Assembly: GCA_024635485.1 (NCBI GenBank)
Contig: JAGXIV010000017.1
Location: 1-64,000 of the forward strand
Origin: a bacterium
Lineage (GTDB): Bacteria; Patescibacteriota; Gracilibacteria; BD1-5; UBA6164
Reading direction: 5' to 3'
Length of the DNA: 64,000 nt
Part shown: piece after piece, positions 1,815 to 43,369 of the stretch
How the letters are laid out: each line of letters opens with the position of its first letter
Numbering within the stretch: position 1 is the first letter of the stretch
The notes under the pieces: generated by a model
What the model saw: the letters and a program-made list of their open reading frames with translations, nothing else
Databases searched by the model: none
What the model was told of the DNA's origin: nothing
Program-made: the position numbers and the translations under genes

Positions 1815-3182
1815 ATGAAAAAAATAAAAACTCTGTTATTAGCTCAAGTCGCAAATGTTTCAAAAGATACTATACTGAGCTTTAGTTCTTTACCGTATAC
1901 CAAAATAGTTTTTTTATATGATGGGAAACGAGATACTGAAAAAATGCGACTTCCAGCACACATGGAAATAGTCAGTTATAATGGACAAAATTCTCTCAGC
2001 CGAGCAATCAATATGGTATTTAGTGAGCATTTAGAATATACTATTATTCCACAATTTTCATGAGATGATAATTCTAAACACGCAATTAAGGTCTATAATA
2101 AGACATATGGAACAAAAATAAATCCTAAAATATTTAAAGAAAAAGATGTGATGCAGAACTTTCTTTGAAATGTTTGAGAAAAAAATATTCTTCGTAAAAC
2201 TTATAAGGAAGTATTGCATATGGAGTATGAAGAATTGCTAGAAAAAGTAGGAACAACGAGTATTATTAAGCCGACAAATGCGAGCGCCTCTCGTAGTACT
2301 TTTAAAATATCATCAAAAGAAGACTTTGAATCTATACTTCCAAAACTTTGAAGAAGTTTTGATTATCTTATTGAAGAGTATATAGGAGGAGAACTCTATT
2401 CTGTCGATGTATATTATGCTGATTGAAAAATGTATCTACTTACGTATGCAAGAGAAATTGCGATGATTGAGTTATCAGATAAAAAGAAATTTTCAAAAGA
2501 ATTTTTAGAGAAATATGGTGAAGACCTACAAAAACATTTTAATTTTATTCTTCCTATTGCCTACCATCTAGATTTTTCTATGTTGGCAAAAATGGAGCTT
2601 ATGTTACTTGAGCAACTGCGAGTAAAACTACAAGGAATTGATTATAGGGGAGTAATTCATCTTGAGTATAAATATGATAAGTCTGCAAAAAAAATTGGAT
2701 TTTTAGAATGGGGTGCGAGATATGGGTGATATAGAAAAGTTTTTATTAAAGAAATCTATAATACAGATATTAAAAGAATACCTTACTACTTGCTCATTGA
2801 AAAGGATACTTCAAGATTCAAACAACTTAAATGAGATATTCTTTGTTTTAAAGAACAAGAGCACAATCTTAATTTTGTAAGAATGAAAACTAATTTTATT
2901 GAAACCACAAACTATATTGATATTCTGAAAAAAACTGGAAATATATTTGAAGTATCATTCCAAAGTTTTTTGAAAGAATACTATCTAAGAAATTTTTGAA
3001 TTAAAATAAAAAAAATAGACTTTTTTGTAAAATATTCTTCTGGTTTTAACTTTTTTCCATTTTATAATGAAAAAGTTACAAAACTCGATTATATTCTTGA
3101 GCTTGATGATGAAAATTTTGAACTCTATAAAAAGAAAAAATTTAGAATCATAGAAAAAACATTCTTTCACGATTATAAATAA
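1815..3182 (+). CDS. ATP-grasp domain protein, possible amino-acid or peptide ligase
   Basis: 455 aa with ATP-grasp features. Residues about 155-165 (IIKPTNASASRST) match the nucleotide-binding Lys and glycine-rich loop region. LIEEYIGGELYSVDVYY (about 183-199) is the adenine-binding hinge, and HLEYKYDKSAKKIGFLEWGA supplies the acidic Mg-binding residues ahead of the RYGG motif. ATP-grasp enzymes make acyl-phosphates to join carboxylates to amines. The C-terminal 130 residues match nothing I recognise. The stop overlaps the ATG of the following MFS gene (TAATG), so the two are probably co-translated. Ligase-exporter pairs of this kind occur in dipeptide or peptide antibiotic pathways, but the substrate here is open. 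Confidence 0.75.
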
Positions 3183-4444
3183 TGAAAAATACATTCTTGA
3201 ATATGATGAAATCTCGATTTTTTATTGTATTCATTTTAACTTTTGTTAATGGACTGAGCTTTACCATGCTTTTTCCTGTTCTTCCATTTATTATTAAGCT
3301 ATATCAAGAACCCGAAGTAGTTCTGGGGATACTTCTATGAACTTTTAGCTTATTTCAATTCATAGCGGCTCCTATTCTTGGTTCGCTATCTGATACCTAT
3401 GGTCGTAAACCTATTCTTATAATTACACAGGCTGGTACCATGTTAGCATGGATTGTATTATGAATTTCCTATTTACTGCCAGAGTTTGAGTTTTTATGAC
3501 TGATTTCATTTCCGATACTTATAATATTTCTTTCTCGAGTATTTGATGGTATCACAGGAGGTAATAATTCAGTAGCACAGGCAATAATCGCAGATCTTTC
3601 AACTCCAGCTGAGAGAACAAAAGTATTTTGATTTAACGGAGCTATAATGTGAATGGCTATAGTAGTTGGTCCTTCTATTTGAGCATTTTCAATGTGAACC
3701 AGCTACTGATATTTATGAACTGCGATAGCAGGTGCAACTATTTCGCTTATAACACTTCTCATTATGATTTTCTTTTTGCAAGAATCTCTTGCAGTAGAAG
3801 ATATGAAAGAAAAAGTTAAAATTTCACTTAAAAATACAAATCTTTTTGCTCAAATAGGGAAGTGGTGAAAATTTGAAAATATTAGATATACCATATTTAT
3901 GAAAACATGTATGTTTTCAGCTTTTGTAGCCTATACAAGTATTTCGGCACTCTATCTTATAGATACCTTTTGATTTGATGCTATTAATGTAGGGTATTAT
4001 ATGACTTTTACAGGAATGTTTCTTATTTTTCACCAGACAGTTTCTATTAGATATTTTGTTAGAAAATTTAGAGATAGAAAAAGTCTGTATATATGAATGA
4101 TTCTGATGTGAGTATGATTTTTTTTAATGGCATCTACAAAAAATATTGTACTTTTTACTCTATTCTATTTCTTCGCAGTCCTCGGTATTTCTCTCTCTTG
4201 GAGTACCCTAAGTTCACTATTTTCTAGAAGTGTAGATAAAAAAAGCCAATGAGAAATTATGTGAATGGTCGCAGGATTAGAGAGTTTTATCTCTGTGTGA
4301 ATTCCGGTTGTAGCTACTCTTCTTTATGGATATATAGATTTTTCTATTTATTATCTCCTTGCTATTCTTCCTCTCGTATCTGTCATAATAAGTTCGCTTG
4401 TTTATAAAAATATAGAGTTTTCAAGTGTCAAAGAAGCTTCATAA
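3182..4444 (+). CDS. Major facilitator superfamily transporter
   Basis: 420 aa with about 12 hydrophobic segments. The loop between TM2 and TM3 carries the MFS motif A (GSLSDTYGRKP, about residues 66-76). Many transmembrane Gly codons are TGA. The arrangement, with short N- and C-termini and a central loop near residues 195-230, resembles drug/H+ antiporters of the TetA-like kind. It overlaps the preceding ATP-grasp gene by one base, so it may export that enzyme's product. Transporter class is firm; substrate and direction are inferred from context only. Confidence 0.9.
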
Positions 4445-28325: not shown

Positions 28326-29885
28326 ATGATCTATTATTTGAAATTATATTTTTCCCGTTCACTTGATGAAGTTACATCATTGATAGATGATGAGATTTTT
28401 CATGGTAGTTTAGAAAAGATTATCGAAGTAACGTATAGTTACAAAGATATATGAGAGTGAAACCTATATAACGAGACTCTTTTTGAAGATTATCTCAAAG
28501 TTCCATATTCAAAAAATATGAATTTATCAGTTCTATGAAAAAAATATTCTCATAAAATATATAAACAAATTTGAACAATTGATGATAGTATTAAAAAATT
28601 GGAACACCTTAATGTGCTTTCACGTGTAGAGAGTTTAAGGAGAAGTATCTTGATAGATGCCTTGTTATATGTAAGAAATATACTGGAATTATCATCAAAA
28701 GCTGTTGTATTTGAAATTGAGAAAGCGTGAGATACTATTTGAATTATAGATTCTCAAAGAAATAGATTACTGCATACTATTGAATCCTTAGAAAAAAAAG
28801 CATTTTGACCATTAGTTATGGAAAACTCTGGAGAGTTTTCTCGTTGTTATAATTTTATAGAAAGAAATCATAACCTTCAAAAATCAAAACTCAGCAGAAG
28901 TGATGTTATTAAAATGAATAAATTTCTTAAAATTATTAAAAATTCTAGAAAATGTGATTTTACAGAAATCCATGAAGTACCTTCTCCAGAATTGGAGGAG
29001 CCATTATTTAATATAGATATACAAAGAAAAGATTATAGGAAAATATTTGATAGTGTATGTGAAATATATAATCTTCCTCAACGAACAGTTCTTTCAAATG
29101 CAGGTTCTATTTATGATTGAGATGAATCACTAGAAATACCAAGAAACGAGAATTTTTCTTGTCTCCCACTTGATCGTGTGCTTAAACTTTTAACTCATGA
29201 AATTGAGTCTCATTATATTAATCAATATAATTGAAAAAAAATATTATGAAATTTTAGGTGAGCTAAAAATCTACCAAAAGAAGAGTGACTTGCAATGTTT
29301 ATGGAAAGAATTTATTTAGGCTATACCTATGATACTATAGATACTATCGTTGAATATTTTTTTACAATTCTTGCCTGAGAAATATTAAGCTGAGAAGATT
29401 TTCAAGAGTTTATGAGAATCATGGTAACAGAATATAAATGTATGCGGTCTTATGATGTAGCGGTACTTCGTGCTAAAAGAAACTACTCTTTCCATGCTCC
29501 TTGAGTACAACATAAAGATGTTGTATATTTCAGAGGACTTACAGAAGTAATTGATTATTTGAAAACCTGATGAGAATTTAAGAAATTATTCCTCTGAAAG
29601 GTGTGATTTTTGGATTTAGATAATATGTATGATTTATATCAAAGGTATGAAAAAAAAGAAGAGATTGTATTTCCATTATTCATATCAGATCTTATTAGTT
29701 ACTATTTTAAGAATTTAGAAAAAAATAATCAATACGAATTCAATATTCAAGAATATAATCTATTTTTGAAGAAAAAATATTGGTTTTTAGATTTAGATTC
29801 TTTTAAGATTATTCAACGTCTGACAGAGGATTGGAATAGAATTGATAAATTGTTACAATTCCTTAAAAAAATACTTATAAAATAA
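28326..29885 (+). CDS. DUF1704 (MATCAP/QEGLA-type) metallopeptidase homologue
   Basis: 519 aa. LLTHEIESHYINQYNG gives the HExxxH site (His291, Glu292, His296), followed by NLPKEEGLAMFMER (Glu319-Glu320), the counterpart of the QEGLA motif. A later block, GVQHKDVVYFRGLTEV with FLGKVGFLDLDNMY, matches the KDVVYLRGL and GK conservation of DUF1704. In eukaryotes this family removes C-terminal tyrosine from tubulin; the bacterial substrates are unknown. The N-terminal 200 residues are helical and unassigned. It starts two bases after the transglycosylase stop and is paralogous to the gene at 32121. Confidence 0.75.
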
Positions 29886-29891
29886 TTAGTA

Positions 29892-31016
29892 TTATGAAAG
29901 TGTTTTAATTTTAAGAACCATTTTTTTAAAAAATAACGTACTATTATAGTTATTATCTGAACTTATGAGTCATTGCTCGATTTCTTTTATTCATATATCT
30001 CAAGCCATTATTAGGTTATAATTTTCAGAATTTTTATGAATTAAATTTATAACATTTTTGTATCACTTATTATAAACTAAATCCTTTAAGTAGAAATCAC
30101 TACTTCAAAAACTACAATATCTATGGAATCGATTATAGTATTTTTTTGATTGTTCTAGATTAAATCATTTGCACTGCAAAATTTGGAAAATACTATTTAT
30201 TTTTTCATCCTCAGTGACATCTTTTAGGAGTATTTCAAAACAAGCATTATAATATGGAATAAATTTTCATATATTAGTTATTTTATTCCCATAGAGATAT
30301 TCGTTGTAAATAGCTATTCCCTCTTCTAACTGGTAATAATTTGAAAATCAATATTTAAATCATAGATTTTTTTCTCCATTAAATGATCGAAAGAAATGAG
30401 TTGTTTCATGAAAAAATATGGTGATGATAGTTCTAATAGTATAGAATCTTTTTTTTGGGATGAGTATTGTTCCTCATCTATGAATAAGATTTGGAAATTT
30501 TCCAAACTCAAATTTTAGTTCTGGACATATACTCTGTGCATAGAGTATTAAATCTAAAAGAGTAGAATATGAGTATTTTTCTTCATAATATTGGCATGAA
30601 GTTATGGGGTTATTCTTTCAAATATCTTTTTTCGTAACTCAAAAAAAAGCAAGATTATAATAATCCATATTTCCTCTTTCTGATGCATAGATATCTGGTT
30701 CAACCTTTTTAGCTTCTATATCAAATCTTTCTCGTAAAAATTGAATTTTTAGAAGCACAGAATTTATTTCAGAATGTATAATAGCTGAGTCTTTCTCTGA
30801 TAATTTTTCTCAATATGTTTGTTTTTGTAGTTTGAGAATATTTCTTTCCTTTTTTCTTAATTTTTGGAAATATTCAAGTTTATAAGACATCACATCTCAT
30901 CTAAATTTATTTCAAAATATCGTTGTATTTATAAGTTCTCAGTCATTTTCTTCAATTCTTCAATTGATTGCAATTTGGTTTTGTGAAAGTTTTTCTAGTA
31001 ATTCTTGTAAATTCAT
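29892..31016 (-). CDS. Divergent DUF1704-like metallopeptidase with HETTH motif
   Basis: 374 aa. TIFFHETTHFFRSFNGEKN has a regular HExxH (His203-Glu204, His207), followed by YYQLEEGIAIYNEYLYG (Glu231-Glu232), the same two-motif order as in the DUF1704 genes on either side. The N-terminus is coiled (about 40-95, KLRKKERNILKLQKQ). It is shorter, and the KDVVYxRG block is not clear. It follows the ATP-grasp gene on the same strand by 3 bp, so ligase and peptidase form one operon. Membership in DUF1704 is an inference from the motif pair and context. Confidence 0.6.
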
Positions 31017-31019
31017 CTA

Positions 31020-32003
31020 TTAAATATCTAATTTAAATAATTTTTCTAACATTATTTTTCAAGGATTTCGTGTTGATAGTTCTCTATATCCTCATATTCA
31101 TGGAGAGGCATTTACTTCTAAAATAATTCAATTTCCATTTCCTAAATCTTTTGAGGGATCTTTTAGTATCATATCAACGGCACAAATTCAAAGTCCGAAC
31201 TCTTTTGCTATTTCTATTCAAATATTTTTTGTTTTTTGAGTAATAATATCTGTTACATCAATCATAGATCAACCAGTTCCAAGATTACTATTTCATCGTA
31301 GTTGCACGTGTTCTCACTGATCAGGGATGCTTGTAAGTAATGTATCACTCTTTTCTAGGTATCAGAGTGTTTCGGCATCGATTTCGATTTCTGTGAGATA
31401 ATTATTATATCAGACTCCTCTTTCAGGTCTTTTATTCTTTTTTACAATAAGTTCTTCGATATTTTTTTCTCCATCTCAGGTAATATGTGCCGGTACTCTA
31501 TTTATTGCTACTACTACTTCTCATAATATAACAACAAGTCGAACTTCATCTCATTCAGCTTGTTCTTGAACTATCATAGTATCATAGATTTCAAATGACG
31601 TGTTGAGTTTTTCTGACAGTTCTGAAAAATTATGTATATGCATCATTACTCAATTTCCATGTCATTCATCCAGGGGTTTAATGACAAGTGGATAATGAAA
31701 TCATTTTAGATTTTTTTCACTTAAATTCGATAATTCATTTTTTTTAATATAGATAGATTTTGCAATAGGAGCTTCTATTCTTTCTAGCATATCATAGCTC
31801 AGTCCTTTATCCATACATATCTTAAAACCAAGAGCTGTATTTTTTCAAAAATCTGTACTTTTGAAGAGTATTGATTTTTTGTTATCTGAAACGATATAGA
31901 GATTTTTATCCTTATTTATTATTTCAGTCTCTAATCATAGTAAGGCAGCTTCTTCAACTATAACTTGAGAACTGATTGACCAATATGATAATGGAAGACT
32001 CAT
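31020..32003 (-). CDS. ATP-grasp ligase, cyanophycin synthetase/GshF-like
   Basis: 327 aa, an almost pure ATP-grasp unit. HYPLVIKPLDEGHGNGVMM, DTMIVQEQAEGDEVRLVVI, then VVAINRVPAHITGDGEKNI with EELI, QLRGNSNLGTGGSMIDVTD, GLGICAVDMIL and IILEVNASPGIGGYREL. The RVPAHxTGDG...LRxNxNLxTGG order is that of the ATP-grasp half of cyanophycin synthetase and the second half of GshF, which join amino acids to peptides. Here the Mur-ligase half of CphA is missing. It heads a minus-strand operon with the HETTH peptidase gene. The substrate is unknown; it could be a peptide tag, poly-amino acid or thiol tripeptide. Confidence 0.8.
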
Positions 32004-32120
32004 GGAATTTTAATTTTAGAAATTATTATAATTATAATACATAAAAAACATTATTTTACAAAGCTACATAATACTTGTATAATAATGTAGATATGTTTTA
32101 AATAATATACTATAGTAAAT

Positions 32121-33840
32121 ATGAATGAATTAAGACAAGAAGATTTCTTGGAAAATATAAGTCTAGAACTCGCTGATATTTTAGACTCAAAAAACAATCC
32201 ATGATTAGATAGTATTATCGAATTAACGTATTGATATAAGAGTCTAGATAATTGAAAATATTTCAATATGACTCTCTTTGGTAAATACTGTTGAATAGAA
32301 ATAGTAGATGGAGTATTAGTTATGAAATCATCTCAAAAAACAGTAAGTCCAGAAGAAACAATTTCAATTTTTAAATCAAAGTCAGATGGTAATATCACAG
32401 CCCTTGAAGAAATTAAAATAACACTTCGATGAAAAAATGATATTGATGATATCACACAAAGGGATTCAATAATTGCGGCGCTTGAATATAATATTAGTTG
32501 TATAAAATATGCACAAAATAGTATTGAATTTGAGCTTGAAAAAGTTTGATTTGAATTTAAATGAAGAAGAGAGGATAGTAAAAAGAGAAGTCAACGAAGC
32601 ATTCGAATTAAAATTATATGGATGAAAAATTATAGAAAATAGAGAAGAATCTAAATTTTCAGTAGAATTTTTATGGAGCAAAATAAAAGAGTATGAAGAA
32701 GCTCCAACAGAAGCAGCTAAAACAGCTTTAGTAGAATGAGAACCAGATAGAGTTTTAAATCTTGATGAAATAGCGAGATTAAAAGGTTATATACGAAAAA
32801 TTCAAGATGAAGTAGAAGAAACGCATTGATTGACAGTTCAAGAATCTTCGGAGAAGGATAAGTCAATAACGCATGTTTTTTTAGATTCTATCAAGAAGGT
32901 AAATATTTCTCGTGACGATACAATTTGAATATTTAATGATATCTTACAATTTTTAGGGCTTTCTCAAAGAGCGAGAGTTGGTATAAATGGTGAAGTTCAG
33001 TCAATATATGATTCTCCTACTGAATTAGTCATCCCTGATACAAAAGAATTTGAATCTCTCTGAGCTGGAAGAGTTTTAAATTTGATTATTCATGAGATTT
33101 TATGTCATTATATCAATCAAAAAAATCATGAAGAAAATAATTGAAAGCTGAGATTTAATTTAAATGTACCGAAGGAAGAAGGATTGGCCATTTTATGAGA
33201 AAAATGACATGCTGGAAAATGATTTGAATGAAAAGATCTCATTTCTGCTCCATTCGCTCGAATTTTAGCAGGAGAAATTTTAGTTCCTGAAGAATTTCGA
33301 GATTTCGTAGATCTCTTTTCACAAATTTCTGAACGTAAAGGCTCGGTAGATGTACTTATTAATAGACATAAAAGGAATCAAGAAACAGAAGTAAAATGAG
33401 TTCAACATAAAGATGTTGCTTATATACGATGACTTATAGCTAATCTTAGTTATTTAAAAGAATGATGAGATATTGAAAATCTGTTCGTTTGAAAGGTATG
33501 ATTAGATGCTATAAAAAATTGAGAATATTCATTTGATAATGAGAATATGCTATTTCCTTTTTTAATCACTGATGTATTTTTGTTTTTTCTTCTTACTCAA
33601 AAAGAAGGTTTAAAATTTACTCATAGAGATTTCATTAGATATTTAGAAAGTAAATATGGAAGTATTATCAAAAAAGAAAGCTTTGCAAAAGTAACAAAAC
33701 TGCTCTGAAGAAAACAATTATTAGAGTTATTTACAATACTCAAACCTCTTTCAAATGCAATTGCCCAATCTTGAGTTGATGCTTCAATATGAGAAAATAT
33801 ATCCAGAGTTCACAAAGTTCTTGATAAAAGTAAAGCATAA
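32121..33840 (+). pseudogene. DUF1704 metallopeptidase homologue with a +1 frameshift
   Basis: The first frame runs from the ATG at 32121 and stops at TAG 32640-32642. The rest continues in the +1 frame to TAA at 33840; the total, 1720 nt, is 3n+1. Alignment with the paralogue at 28326 (FEIEKAG versus FELEKVG, then NEEERIVKREVNEAF) puts the change near 32552-32564, where frame 0 reads TTT AAA TGA AGA. The second part is well preserved: LIIHEILCHYINQKN (HExxxH), NVPKEEGLAI and GVQHKDVAYIRGL. It may be a broken gene, a base error in assembly, or programmed +1 slippage at AAA-UGA. An in-frame ATG for the second part exists at 32509. Confidence 0.7.
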
Positions 33841-39199: not shown

Positions 39200-40732
39200 A
39201 TGCATCTAGATTCTACAATTCTTACTTGATGAGATGATCATAATAAAGAGATGACTGAAGAGTTTTCTTGGTCAGATCATGGAGATATTATTCGAAAAAT
39301 TGGTCCTGACCAAAAATACATCACTTTCTTGAATTCAAGATGAGAAGAAGTCAAAATCTCACTTTTGGATCTTGATAATATCTGAAATTTAAATGATGAC
39401 GAAATTTCTGAAATGCTCCGTATTATTCTAGGTATTTCTATTCAAAGTGTTGATTGACTGAAGAAGGTGAATATCTTAGCTCAAAAGGCATTTATTTATC
39501 TGAAAAATGAACTACTTTATACAGATAAGGAATTACGTGGAATATGAAATATTCACTTCAATAACTCTTCTGAAATTATAAATTTTTTTAGAAATACAAA
39601 ATTAGCACATTGATTACAAAAGTGTATGTTATCAAAAATATGACTTTTGCTGCATGAATGAATTGGCCATGATGTTGAGGAAAAAAGAAATAAAACCATT
39701 GACGTACTAGAAAATAAAGTTGTAAAAAACTTAGAAGATCTCGCGAAAGAATCATCACTTTGATTTGAAAATGTATCAGCAATAGAACAATTTAGAGAAG
39801 AATGAAAAACAACTTTTAATGGGTCTATTTATGTTGAAAATTTAAATTCTCAGGCAAGAAAAATAAATTTTACAGTTGAGATTCGTGAAAAATCACTTGA
39901 ATCATCAATTTCAAAGGCATTGAGAGAAAAAGATTATGTCAGCCAATGAGATATTATGGATTTACTTGGTATAAGAATTACAACGAAAAATAAAGAAGAT
40001 AAACTCTTACTCATGAATAGAATTTCTCAGCTAGCATTTAAATATTGAGAATACAGAATAAAAAACAAAAATGGAATAGGTAAATTGGACTTAGAAACTA
40101 TATTATGAGAATCAGAATTCTTCACAAAAAATGAATCGACAAGACTCTTTATACAACGATTAGAAGAAAGTTTTAATTCACTTGATCGTAGAGCGAGTAC
40201 TGCACTAAAATACTCAGATGTAAAAATCGTCCCAGTATGAGATGGAAATAAACTCAGTTTTGAAATTTTATTTTTCGATGAGTGACATATTAATAATTTT
40301 GGTCTTTCACATCATATCTCTTTTCAATATAAAAGAAAAATTGAAGAGAGAATTAGGCTAGAGTGATTTATACTTTGAGAATGAATAACTATTATTGCTG
40401 ACGCAATGGTTGATAAAATCTGATCAAGTACAAAAGCGTCACTTTGAAACATTACCCCAACTGATCTCTTAGGTCAAACCTTGATAGATATTTATGATGA
40501 ATCTCTTGTATATAGGAAAGATTATTGATTAAAAAATCATTCAGAAATTAAAAAAATGCAAAAGCAGGAACTTGTGTATGAATTAAAACGAGTATTGCCT
40601 TTATATTTTGCTACTCGACTTATACCATATAAGGATTCAAAATGAAACACATCTCGAAGAAAGAAATATACTAATAAGATTTGAATAGAAAATCTCTCTG
40701 TATTAGAAGAATCAAATACATATCTTAGTTAG
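39200..40732 (+). CDS. RelA/SpoT nucleotidyltransferase-domain-like protein
   Basis: 510 aa. The part around residues 225-275 reads NFTVEIREKSLESSISKALR and then DIMDLLGIRITTKNKEDK, matching the start and the DLxGIRI core of RelA/SpoT synthetase domains. No HD hydrolase, TGS or ACT domain is seen, so it would be a single-domain (small alarmone synthetase-like) enzyme within a larger protein. The N-terminal 200 residues and the C-terminal 200 are unassigned. It could make (p)ppGpp or a related nucleotide, or act on RNA. The motif is short, so the call is tentative. Confidence 0.5.
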
Positions 40733-41314: not shown

Positions 41315-43369
41315 CTATGAAAATATTTCAATGAATTCTCATTTTAGTACATATTTATCAAGTTCTGTTATTTTAACTGAAACAATACTTCCAACTTTGG
41401 TATCTAAGGGAGCTTTGAAAAATACCTCTTTAAAGTTTCTGGTTCTTCCGAAAAAAAATCCATCTCTACTTCCTGAAACTAATATTTCTTCTGTCCTAGC
41501 TATCATAAGCTTATTTCTTTTTTTGACACTTTCTAAAAGAGCATCATTTAAAATATGCCACCTTCTTGCTTTTTCTGCTTCAGGTACGTCATCAGGAAGG
41601 ACTTTAGCTGCAGCTGTATTTGGTCGAACTGAATATCGTGCAATATAACAATAATCAAATTCACATTCTTGTATTGCCCTCAATGTTTCAAGAAACATTT
41701 CTTCTGTTTCTCCTGAAAAACCTACAATAATATCTGTAGAGATGGAAAAAAGAGGATCTCTAGACCTCATATATTTCACCATTTCTTTAAAATCATTGTA
41801 ACTATGTCTTCTATTCATTCTTTTAAGCATAGCATCACTTCATGATTGGAGTGCAAAATGTAAATAATTACATGTTTTATCACAATCAAAATGAGCATCA
41901 AGTATATCTCGAGTCATATCGTGAGGATTACTTGAAGTAAAGCGAACCCTATCAAGTCAATCAATACTATCTATACTTCATAATAGTTCTCTAAATGGAG
42001 AAGTAAAACTGAGTTTTGGGAGGAGTTTTTCAAAATCATACCAGTCTTTAATTCTAAATATATTTGAATTGTTTTCAGTAATATTCCTATTCCATGGAGC
42101 ATGAAAAACACATATCTTCCCATTAAAGTGAGTGTTATATGATGTAATATGATGAGGCCCATCATCTATTACTATCTCTAGAGATAGTTTATTTGCAGCG
42201 GTGTATTTATTATCATGTCAGTTCTCTTTGATAAAGATAATTTCTTCAAAAAAATTATCTCAGAAATACTTATTTAAAATATCATGTGTACTTTGTTTTG
42301 CATCTATTTCTCTAGAAGTGATAACATAGATTTGATGTCACTGGGATTTAAGTCACTTTAATACACTTTCTCAACCGGTATGAATCTGCAAATTTCGAGC
42401 ATTATCAGTTTCAAAAATATGATACTCATTCATTAATTCCTGTATTCATCCACAATCAAAAGTATCTATATCATCCATTTTGATTATTTCGTGGAACTTT
42501 TGGTTATATTGTTCAAGTAATTCTTCTCAGAGAACAACAAAGAGTGTATCATCAAGATCTACTCAAATCTTTAGCTTGTTATCTTCATTGTTCCATTTTG
42601 ATTTTTCGTTATTCCATAATTTCAAGTTTTTTTGTTTTCCATATGAATTTACATTTTGTCAGAGAAGTGTGACTTCTTTTGCTCATTGTGAAACAGCCCT
42701 TTGAACTTCGGAAACTATTTCTTCTTTATCTCGAGAAAGCTCAGATCATCTCGTAAATGGCACGATACAAAAGCTACAAAAATTATCACATCATGATTGT
42801 ATAATTATGGAGGCTGAAAATGGATTTTCTCTTTGTTGTACTTGTTTTAAATAATCATCAAATTTATCTTCTTGTCCTACTTTTTCTTGATATATCTCAC
42901 TGAGAATGAGAGCTAAGTATTTCGTCTCTTCTATTCTGAGAGTGAAATCAAGAAGTTTTGTTCTTCGAAACAAGTCATCTTCATAATTAAATATTCCCTC
43001 TTTATTTTCAAGAAGTTGTATTTTTTTAACCGTTTTTTTTCTTGTTTTTTCTCAGTCACTCAATTCTGTTACATATTTCTCTGCTAGACCAGTTTTTCTG
43101 ACCATACATCCAGTGATTCAAGCTATTATAGGTCATCTATCTCAAGTTATTTTTCTGTTGTTATTGAATTTATCAATTTCATGCAGGAATCAAAAGACTC
43201 TATCTTCTCATTTTTGTCGTACACTACACGTATTGAAAATCACAAGATCAGCATCTTCTATTGTGAGAGAACGAAAAAAACCAGACTGGAGAAGAATCAT
43301 ATGAATCTTCTCACTGTCAGCCTGGTTCATTTGACATCAAAATGTTTGAATGAAGTATTTACGTTGCAT
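41315..43369 (-). CDS. miaB: MiaB tRNA methylthiotransferase with inserted HAD phosphatase domain
   Basis: 684 aa against about 440 for usual MiaB. The N-terminal UPF0004 domain has Cys12 (TFGCQMNQADSE), Cys48 (FNTCSVR) and Cys88 (ITGCMVRK). The radical SAM cluster is C194-x3-C198-x2-C201 (GCDNFCSFCIVPFTRGS), then LLGQNVNSYGK. At that point a HAD domain of about 190 residues is inserted (about 262-455): IGVDLDDTL (Asp271, Asp273), YVITSREID and VIDDGPHH (Asp402-Asp403), like 5'(3')-deoxyribonucleotidases. MiaB then resumes with SPFRELLGSIDSID, RVRFTSSNPHDMT and ALQSGSDAMLKRMNR, and a TRAM end. I followed the frame codon by codon through the insert. It modifies ms2i6A37 in tRNA; the added activity is unknown. 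Confidence 0.9.

What the first reader, a model, noticed from the sequence alone, without database searches (positions are those of the whole stretch)
28326..33840. Cluster of three DUF1704-type metallopeptidases and a CphA-like ATP-grasp ligase: candidate tag-addition/removal system
Three genes share an HE-x2/3-H plus EEG(L/I)A motif pair (28326-29885, 29892-31016 minus, 32121-33840), and a CphA-like ATP-grasp ligase (31020-32003) is in operon with one of them. In eukaryotes a DUF1704 peptidase (MATCAP) and an ATP-grasp ligase (TTL) form the detyrosination/tyrosination cycle, and in some bacteria DUF1704 occurs beside ATP-grasp genes. An opposing ligase-peptidase pair with paralogues fits a reversible amino-acid or peptide tagging system in a CPR bacterium. 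The substrate is unknown.
Basis: partly seen in the sequence, partly recalled or inferred. Interest (0 to 1): 0.78.

Follow-up and report, generated by a model that had tools for sequence, protein, structure and literature searches.

The report
CPR bacterial ligase–carboxypeptidase gene cluster
A tiny bacterium carries an enzyme that joins amino acids onto something next to enzymes related to the human tubulin-trimming peptidase MATCAP, and relatives keep this pairing so often that the two probably make and undo the same amino-acid tag or peptide, on a target still unknown.

Summary
Read with the Gracilibacteria code (TGA=Gly), 28326-33840 encodes three MATCAP/DUF1704 (PF08014) metallopeptidases with intact zinc motifs and a stand-alone cyanophycin-synthetase-type ATP-grasp ligase, 3 bp upstream of one peptidase gene. 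One correction: the third peptidase gene is split between two frames. The genome has a fourth MATCAP domain, fused to a different ATP-grasp (PF14397). The pairing is conserved: in this order 18 of 22 CphA-like ligase genes have a MATCAP gene within 5 kb, with different peptidase subfamilies and layouts; three of four exceptions lie near contig ends. No non-CPR CphA relative fetched as control had one. Peptidases of the same subfamily sit beside an ATP-grasp_4 ligase in other genomes. A Paceibacterota contig carries an extended cassette: 7TM-transglutaminase, ATPgrasp_ST, MATCAP, RimK-like and three CphA-like ligases. This resembles the Pseudomonas Rlo/Rim ligase-protease systems, with MATCAP in place of the aspartic protease. 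Most likely the ligase adds amino acids to a carboxyl end and the peptidases remove them. Substrate, residue and direction are not shown; a free peptide or storage polymer remains possible. New variant of a known kind.

The parts
28326..29885 (+). P0001, MATCAP/DUF1704 metallopeptidase, P1 subfamily, 519 aa; HEIESH + EEGLA
   Evidence: PF08014 E=1.5e-11, 44.3 bits; orthologues at the same place beside the lytic transglycosylase gene in G004, G005, G008
29892..31016 (-). P0002, MATCAP/DUF1704 metallopeptidase, P2 subfamily, 374 aa; HETTH (HExxH variant) + EEGIA
   Evidence: PF08014 E=3.3e-9, 36.6 bits; relatives in 19 of 77 genomes of the order
31020..32003 (-). P0003, stand-alone CphA-type ATP-grasp ligase, 327 aa, directly upstream of P0002 on the same strand (3 bp gap)
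   Evidence: TIGR02068 partial E=4e-67; model pLDDT 90.8 superposes on CphA1 159-484 with Z 33.7; Mg/ATP residues E296, N298 conserved
32121..32642 (+). N-terminal part of the third peptidase gene, P1 subfamily, first frame
   Evidence: matches the P1 profile at 7.9e-15; no Pfam match alone
32509..33840 (+). P0005, C-terminal part of the third peptidase, with the catalytic domain; HEILCH + EEGLA; in the +1 frame relative to 32121-32642
   Evidence: PF08014 E=1.8e-6, 27.6 bits; frame change placed near 32576-32588
1815..3182 (+). Second ATP-grasp ligase gene (ATP-grasp_4, 455 aa), overlapping an MFS transporter gene; its close relative in G004 sits directly beside a P0002-type peptidase gene. 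Membership in the same system is inferred.

Best explanation
The locus encodes an opposing pair. P0003 uses ATP to activate a carboxyl end of a protein or peptide and joins an amino acid to it, as the ATP-grasp domain of cyanophycin synthetase does with aspartate. P0002, helped by the paralogues P0001 and P0005, is a zinc carboxypeptidase of the MATCAP type that trims the added residues. Together they would set the level of an amino-acid or short-peptide conjugate. Shown: the families, intact active-site motifs, the operon-like layout, and conserved linkage with exchange of partners. Inferred: that both act on the same bond, that the acceptor is a cellular protein, and that aspartate or a similar residue is added.
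For: 18 of 22 CphA-like genes of the order have a MATCAP gene within 5 kb; three of the four exceptions are near contig ends; a rough chance calculation gives p about 1e-20, ignoring relatedness. Control: MATCAP genes beside CphA relatives occurred only in CPR contigs among the 80 loci fetched. Peptidases of the P0002 subfamily pair with a CphA-like ligase in G000, G005 and G003, and lie directly beside ATP-grasp_4 genes in G004, G061 and G063 (and a similar truncated gene in G048). A fourth MATCAP domain in the same genome is fused to ATPgrasp_ST, and the fusion is conserved in the order. Paceibacterota L154 has these families as neighbouring genes. In rhizobial-type plasmids DUF1704 sits beside a glutathione-synthetase-like ATP-grasp gene. 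All 45 MATCAP domains compared keep both zinc His, the catalytic Glu, the EG motif, and Lys and Tyr equivalent to K311 and Y315 of P0002. Precedents: RimB removes the glutamates that RimK adds, and a RimB-RimK hybrid exists (PMC11957791); loss of RloB or RloC rescues loss of the RloA proteases (PMC12239564); MATCAP/TMCP enzymes are carboxypeptidases and deglutamylases (PMC10499314).
Against: No substrate or activity was tested. P0002-type genes in genera g4 and g5 lie beside lepA with no CphA-like ligase in those genomes, so that subfamily can work without this ligase. Outside the order only 5 of 39 sampled CphA-like loci in the phylum had a detected MATCAP within 5 kb. P0002 has HExxH rather than HExxxH, and its predicted structure was too poor to check the site. 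The third peptidase gene is frame-broken and may be a pseudogene.
Confidence: 0.58

Rival explanations
1. The pair makes and recycles a free oligopeptide or polyamino acid (a storage, osmotic or export compound) rather than tagging proteins. The ligase polymerises amino acids and the peptidases break the product down.
For: The nearest structural relatives of P0003 are cyanophycin synthetases and the bifunctional glutathione synthetase GshAB, which make free products. RimK also makes free poly-glutamate (PMC11957791). The ATP-grasp_4 relative in the window overlaps a transporter gene.
Against: P0003 lacks the Mur-ligase half that CphA needs for its second amino acid, and it belongs to a subtype in which the CphA-like RMHxxPS stretch is replaced by a GGxRE type. 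MATCAP enzymes studied so far act on protein tails (PMC10499314).
Confidence: 0.26
2. Ligase and peptidase act in the same direction, as maturation enzymes of a ribosomally made or assembled peptide (graspetide-like), the peptidase trimming a leader or tail.
For: ATP-grasp ligases with peptidases are a usual layout for such pathways (general knowledge); several cassettes hold two to five ATP-grasp genes.
Against: No precursor gene is evident in the locus: the gaps are a few bp, apart from a 117 bp divergent gap without a convincing small frame. P0003 matches CphA far better than the graspetide ligase PsnB (Z 33.7 against 16.5).
Confidence: 0.1
3. The cluster is a coincidence in a variable spot of the genome where paralogous peptidases accumulate.
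For: The stretch between the lytic transglycosylase and adenylate kinase genes varies between related genomes.
Against: Linkage recurs at other genomic places, in other families of the order and in another CPR class, with different peptidase subfamilies and with fusions; control CphA loci lack it.
Confidence: 0.03

Closest known systems
DUF1704/QEGLA operons of Proteobacteria (N-formylglutamate amidohydrolase, QEGLA peptidase, glutathione-synthetase-like ATP-grasp)
   Same: A DUF1704 peptidase gene directly beside an ATP-grasp ligase gene
   Different: Other ATP-grasp subfamily, an extra amidohydrolase, and peptidases in another part of the tree
Rlo system of Pseudomonas aeruginosa (RloA aspartic protease, RloB 7TM inactive transglutaminase, RloC ATP-grasp; PMC12239564)
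   Same: Ligase opposed by a protease; a 7TM_transglut protein and an ATPgrasp_ST domain (related to the one beside a 7TM_transglut gene in Aeromonas) co-occur across this order and are both in the genome of the window
   Different: The peptidase is a MATCAP metallopeptidase, fused to the ATP-grasp in this order; the window locus itself lacks RloB and RloC relatives and uses a CphA-type ligase
RimK-RimB, including the RimBK hybrid (PMC11957791)
   Same: An ATP-grasp that adds residues to a C-terminus and a partner protease that removes them; fused forms exist
   Different: RimB is an aspartic protease; the window ligase is CphA-type, not RimK
MATCAP/TMCP with TTL, the tubulin detyrosination cycle
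   Same: Same peptidase family (PF08014)
   Different: The opposing ligase is not a TTL family member; the substrate is unknown
Cyanophycin synthetase CphA1
   Same: P0003 superposes on its ATP-grasp module over nearly its whole length (Z 33.7)
   Different: No N-terminal domain and no Mur-ligase domain, so it cannot be a cyanophycin synthetase as known

Membership tests
MATCAP / DUF1704 (PF08014) | Profile match over the curated cut-off | tested here: met
   44.3, 36.6 and 27.6 bits against 27
MATCAP / DUF1704 (PF08014) | HExxxH plus EEG zinc site | tested here: met
   Met for P0001 and P0005; P0002 and its whole subfamily have HExxH with the EEG motif kept
MATCAP / DUF1704 (PF08014) | MATCAP fold | tested here: inconclusive
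   Model of P0002 has mean pLDDT 43; a sequence profile of P1 types reaches MATCAP1 7z5g at E=3.9e-6
MATCAP / DUF1704 (PF08014) | Carboxypeptidase activity | not testable with these tools
   Needs enzyme assay
TIGR02421 QEGLA equivalog | Score over the equivalog cut-off of 338.65 | tested here: not met
   51.8, 33.6 and 31.8 bits
Cyanophycin synthetase (CphA) | ATP-grasp module with conserved ATP/Mg residues | tested here: met
Cyanophycin synthetase (CphA) | Mur-ligase-like second module; full-length score | tested here: not met
   P0003 is 327 aa; 226.9 bits against a cut-off of 850
Rlo system | RloB (PF14402) and RloC-type ATP-grasp (PF14397) at the locus | tested here: not met
   Not at the window locus; both are elsewhere in the genome, on C23 and C20
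Rlo / RimB systems | Retropepsin-like aspartic protease partner | not tested
   No search for RimB/RloA relatives was made in this genome
Tubulin tyrosination cycle | TTL-family ligase | tested here: not met
   P0003 matches RimK-type and CphA profiles; TTL is not among its Pfam matches
Graspetide pathway | Precursor peptide gene near the ligase | tested here: inconclusive
   No plausible small frame in the 117 bp gap; distant precursors not searched

The most novel reading that the evidence does not exclude
A ligase-carboxypeptidase tagging system spread across the Candidate Phyla Radiation, in which MATCAP metallopeptidases, relatives of the human tubulin detyrosinase, oppose CphA-, RimK- and RloC-type ATP-grasp ligases, with a 7TM-transglutaminase membrane protein, to write and erase amino-acid tails on cellular proteins.
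Probability: 0.33. Interest if true: 0.82.

Novelty: new variant of a known kind. Interest (0 to 1): 0.62.

Why it matters
MATCAP peptidases were characterised in animals and ciliates, and their bacterial relatives carry only a placeholder name. A conserved pairing with ligases of several classes, including fusions, gives a concrete hypothesis for what bacterial MATCAP enzymes do, and suggests that the pairing of a carboxypeptidase with an ATP-grasp ligase is older and wider than the tubulin cycle. That such small genomes keep several copies suggests the function matters to these little-known bacteria.

Tried and rejected
A scan of viral contigs for the P0002 family found no relative. PADLOC gave only a marginal GajB match for P0001 (E=6e-4, 66 residues near the C-terminus), rejected as chance. 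Standard-code reading of the window breaks all four genes and was rejected. Iyer et al. 2009 on amidoligases, which I recall as having predicted DUF1704/ATP-grasp pairs, is not held; no held paper names both DUF1704 and ATP-grasp. Graspetide pathway and coincidence were considered and rated low.

Full report
Setting. The window lies in a 1.14 Mb genome that needs the Gracilibacteria/SR1 code (TGA=Gly): under table 11 the genes fall apart, under table 25 they are open.

The observation. Four genes are present. P0001 (28326-29885, +), P0002 (29892-31016, -) and P0005 (32509-33840, +) all match PF08014, the MATCAP/DUF1704 family, over its curated cut-off. Each has a zinc site: HEIESH/EEGLA, HETTH/EEGIA and HEILCH/EEGLA. 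P0003 (31020-32003, -) is an ATP-grasp ligase whose best named relatives are cyanophycin synthetases; it lies 3 bp upstream of P0002 on the same strand. The third peptidase gene is in two frames: 32121-32642 supplies the N-terminal part and 32509-33840 the rest, and joining them with a one-base shift near 32576-32588 gives a protein that matches its subfamily end to end. This may be a real mutation or an assembly error. A fourth MATCAP domain sits on contig C20 in a 795-aa protein whose N-terminal half is another ATP-grasp, PF14397.

Conservation of the pairing. In 77 genomes of the order, relatives of P0002 occur in 19 and relatives of P0003 in 31. I fetched the neighbourhoods and scanned them with profiles of each peptidase subfamily. 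Of 22 CphA-like genes, 18 have a MATCAP gene within 5 kb. Of the four without, three (G037, G049, G061) are close to a contig end and one (G022 contig C116) is a true negative. The layouts differ: CphA-like plus P2 plus P1 (G000, G005); CphA-like, P1b, P2 (G003); CphA-like against P1 (G002, G009); CphA-like, RimK-like and P1 (G007); fusion, 7TM-transglutaminase, RimK-like and CphA-like (G017, G033, G036); 7TM-transglutaminase, fusion, CphA-like (G044); and a further subfamily, P3 with HEIDGH, directly before the CphA-like gene (G025, G045, G049, G071, G076). A rough chance calculation gives p about 1e-20, but related genomes are not independent, so this number only says that chance is not the reason. 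As a control, none of the non-CPR CphA relatives among the 80 fetched had a MATCAP gene in the flanks held, up to 9 kb.

Exchange of partners. The same peptidase subfamily as P0002 sits directly beside a different ligase class, ATP-grasp_4, in G004, G061 and G063, and beside a similar truncated gene in G048. A close relative of the G004 ligase is in the window itself at 1815-3182. In genera g4 and g5 P0002-type genes lie beside lepA without a CphA-like ligase in the genome, so the pairing is not obligate.

Wider distribution. A Paceibacterota contig with the standard code (L154) carries 7TM-transglutaminase, ATPgrasp_ST, MATCAP, RimK-like ATP-grasp, three CphA-like ligases and then a second MATCAP gene. 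In a sample of 192 genomes of the phylum 51 have a strong CphA-like match; among 39 loci looked at, MATCAP was detected within 5 kb in 5, while 7TM-transglutaminase and ATPgrasp_ST were together in 10. So the ligases are common in the phylum and the tight link to MATCAP is strongest in the order of the window. In the order, genomes with a full-length MATCAP match (the fused type) and genomes with the 7TM protein coincide: 40 both, 31 neither, 6 discordant. In Aeromonas the matching ATPgrasp_ST gene lies directly after a 7TM_transglut gene, the layout of RloB and RloC. In plasmids of Shinella and Roseateles records the DUF1704 gene stands between an N-formylglutamate amidohydrolase gene and a glutathione-synthetase-like ATP-grasp gene.

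Active sites and structure. In 45 MATCAP domains from all these groups, both zinc histidines, the catalytic glutamate, the EG of the third ligand motif, and Lys311 and Tyr315 (P0002 numbering) are invariant; Arg296 is kept in 44 and Asp312 in 42. The tree places P0002 in a clade of its own (support 1.0) and P0001 and P0005 in another. The P0003 model (pLDDT 90.8) superposes on residues 159-484 of CphA1 with Z 33.7, 2.8 A over 320 residues, far ahead of RimK (Z 20.6) and D-Ala ligases. It has neither the N-terminal nor the Mur-ligase part of CphA. The invariant ATP-grasp residues are kept. In part of the family, P0003 included, the CphA stretch RMHxxPS is replaced by a GGxRE type, which may mean another acceptor; this is inference. 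The model of P0002 was too poor to use.

How it probably works. ATP-grasp ligases activate a carboxylate as acyl phosphate and join it to an amine (established for this fold). MATCAP/TMCP enzymes remove C-terminal residues, and also added glutamates, from tubulin tails (PMC10499314). A ligase of the first kind in operon with a peptidase of the second kind, conserved across genera and fused in one case, fits a cycle of adding and removing residues. The best analogues are RimK/RimB, where a hybrid protein also exists (PMC11957791), and the Rlo operon, where loss of the ligase-side genes rescues loss of the proteases (PMC12239564). Which molecule is modified is unknown. No precursor peptide gene is evident in the locus. 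A free peptide or storage polymer is the main rival.

Verdict. The gene families and the pairing are well supported; the cycle is the best-supported reading but unproved. The pairing of DUF1704 with ATP-grasp genes is not new as a kind (it is seen in proteobacterial plasmids here, and I recall it from Iyer et al. 2009, which could not be read). What is new to me is the breadth in CPR bacteria, the CphA-type ligase as partner, the fusion to ATPgrasp_ST, the exchange of ligase classes beside one peptidase subfamily, and the combination with Rlo-type genes.

Noticed in passing
window 1815-4444 (+): An ATP-grasp_4 ligase gene (455 aa) overlapping an MFS transporter gene; a possible unit that makes and exports a small peptide.
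   Followed up: partly
window 41315-43369 (-): A MiaB-type radical SAM methylthiotransferase (684 aa) appears to carry an inserted HAD-like domain in its middle (weak HAD_2 match at residues 283-380).
   Followed up: partly
L154:7953-11041: Three CphA-type ATP-grasp ligases in tandem on a Paceibacterota contig, within a cassette that includes two MATCAP genes.
   Followed up: partly
L093-L102 (genera g4, g5): P0002-type peptidase genes lie beside lepA in all of these genomes, without a CphA-like ligase; they keep HExxH and mostly EEGF(A/S).
   Followed up: partly
L094:8773-9909 (-): The P0002-type gene of G053 is interrupted by a stop (TAA), so it may be decaying in that lineage or be an assembly error.
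   Followed up: no
window 39200-40732 (+): A 510-aa protein with a weak RelA/SpoT match (21.4 bits, below the cut-off).
   Followed up: no
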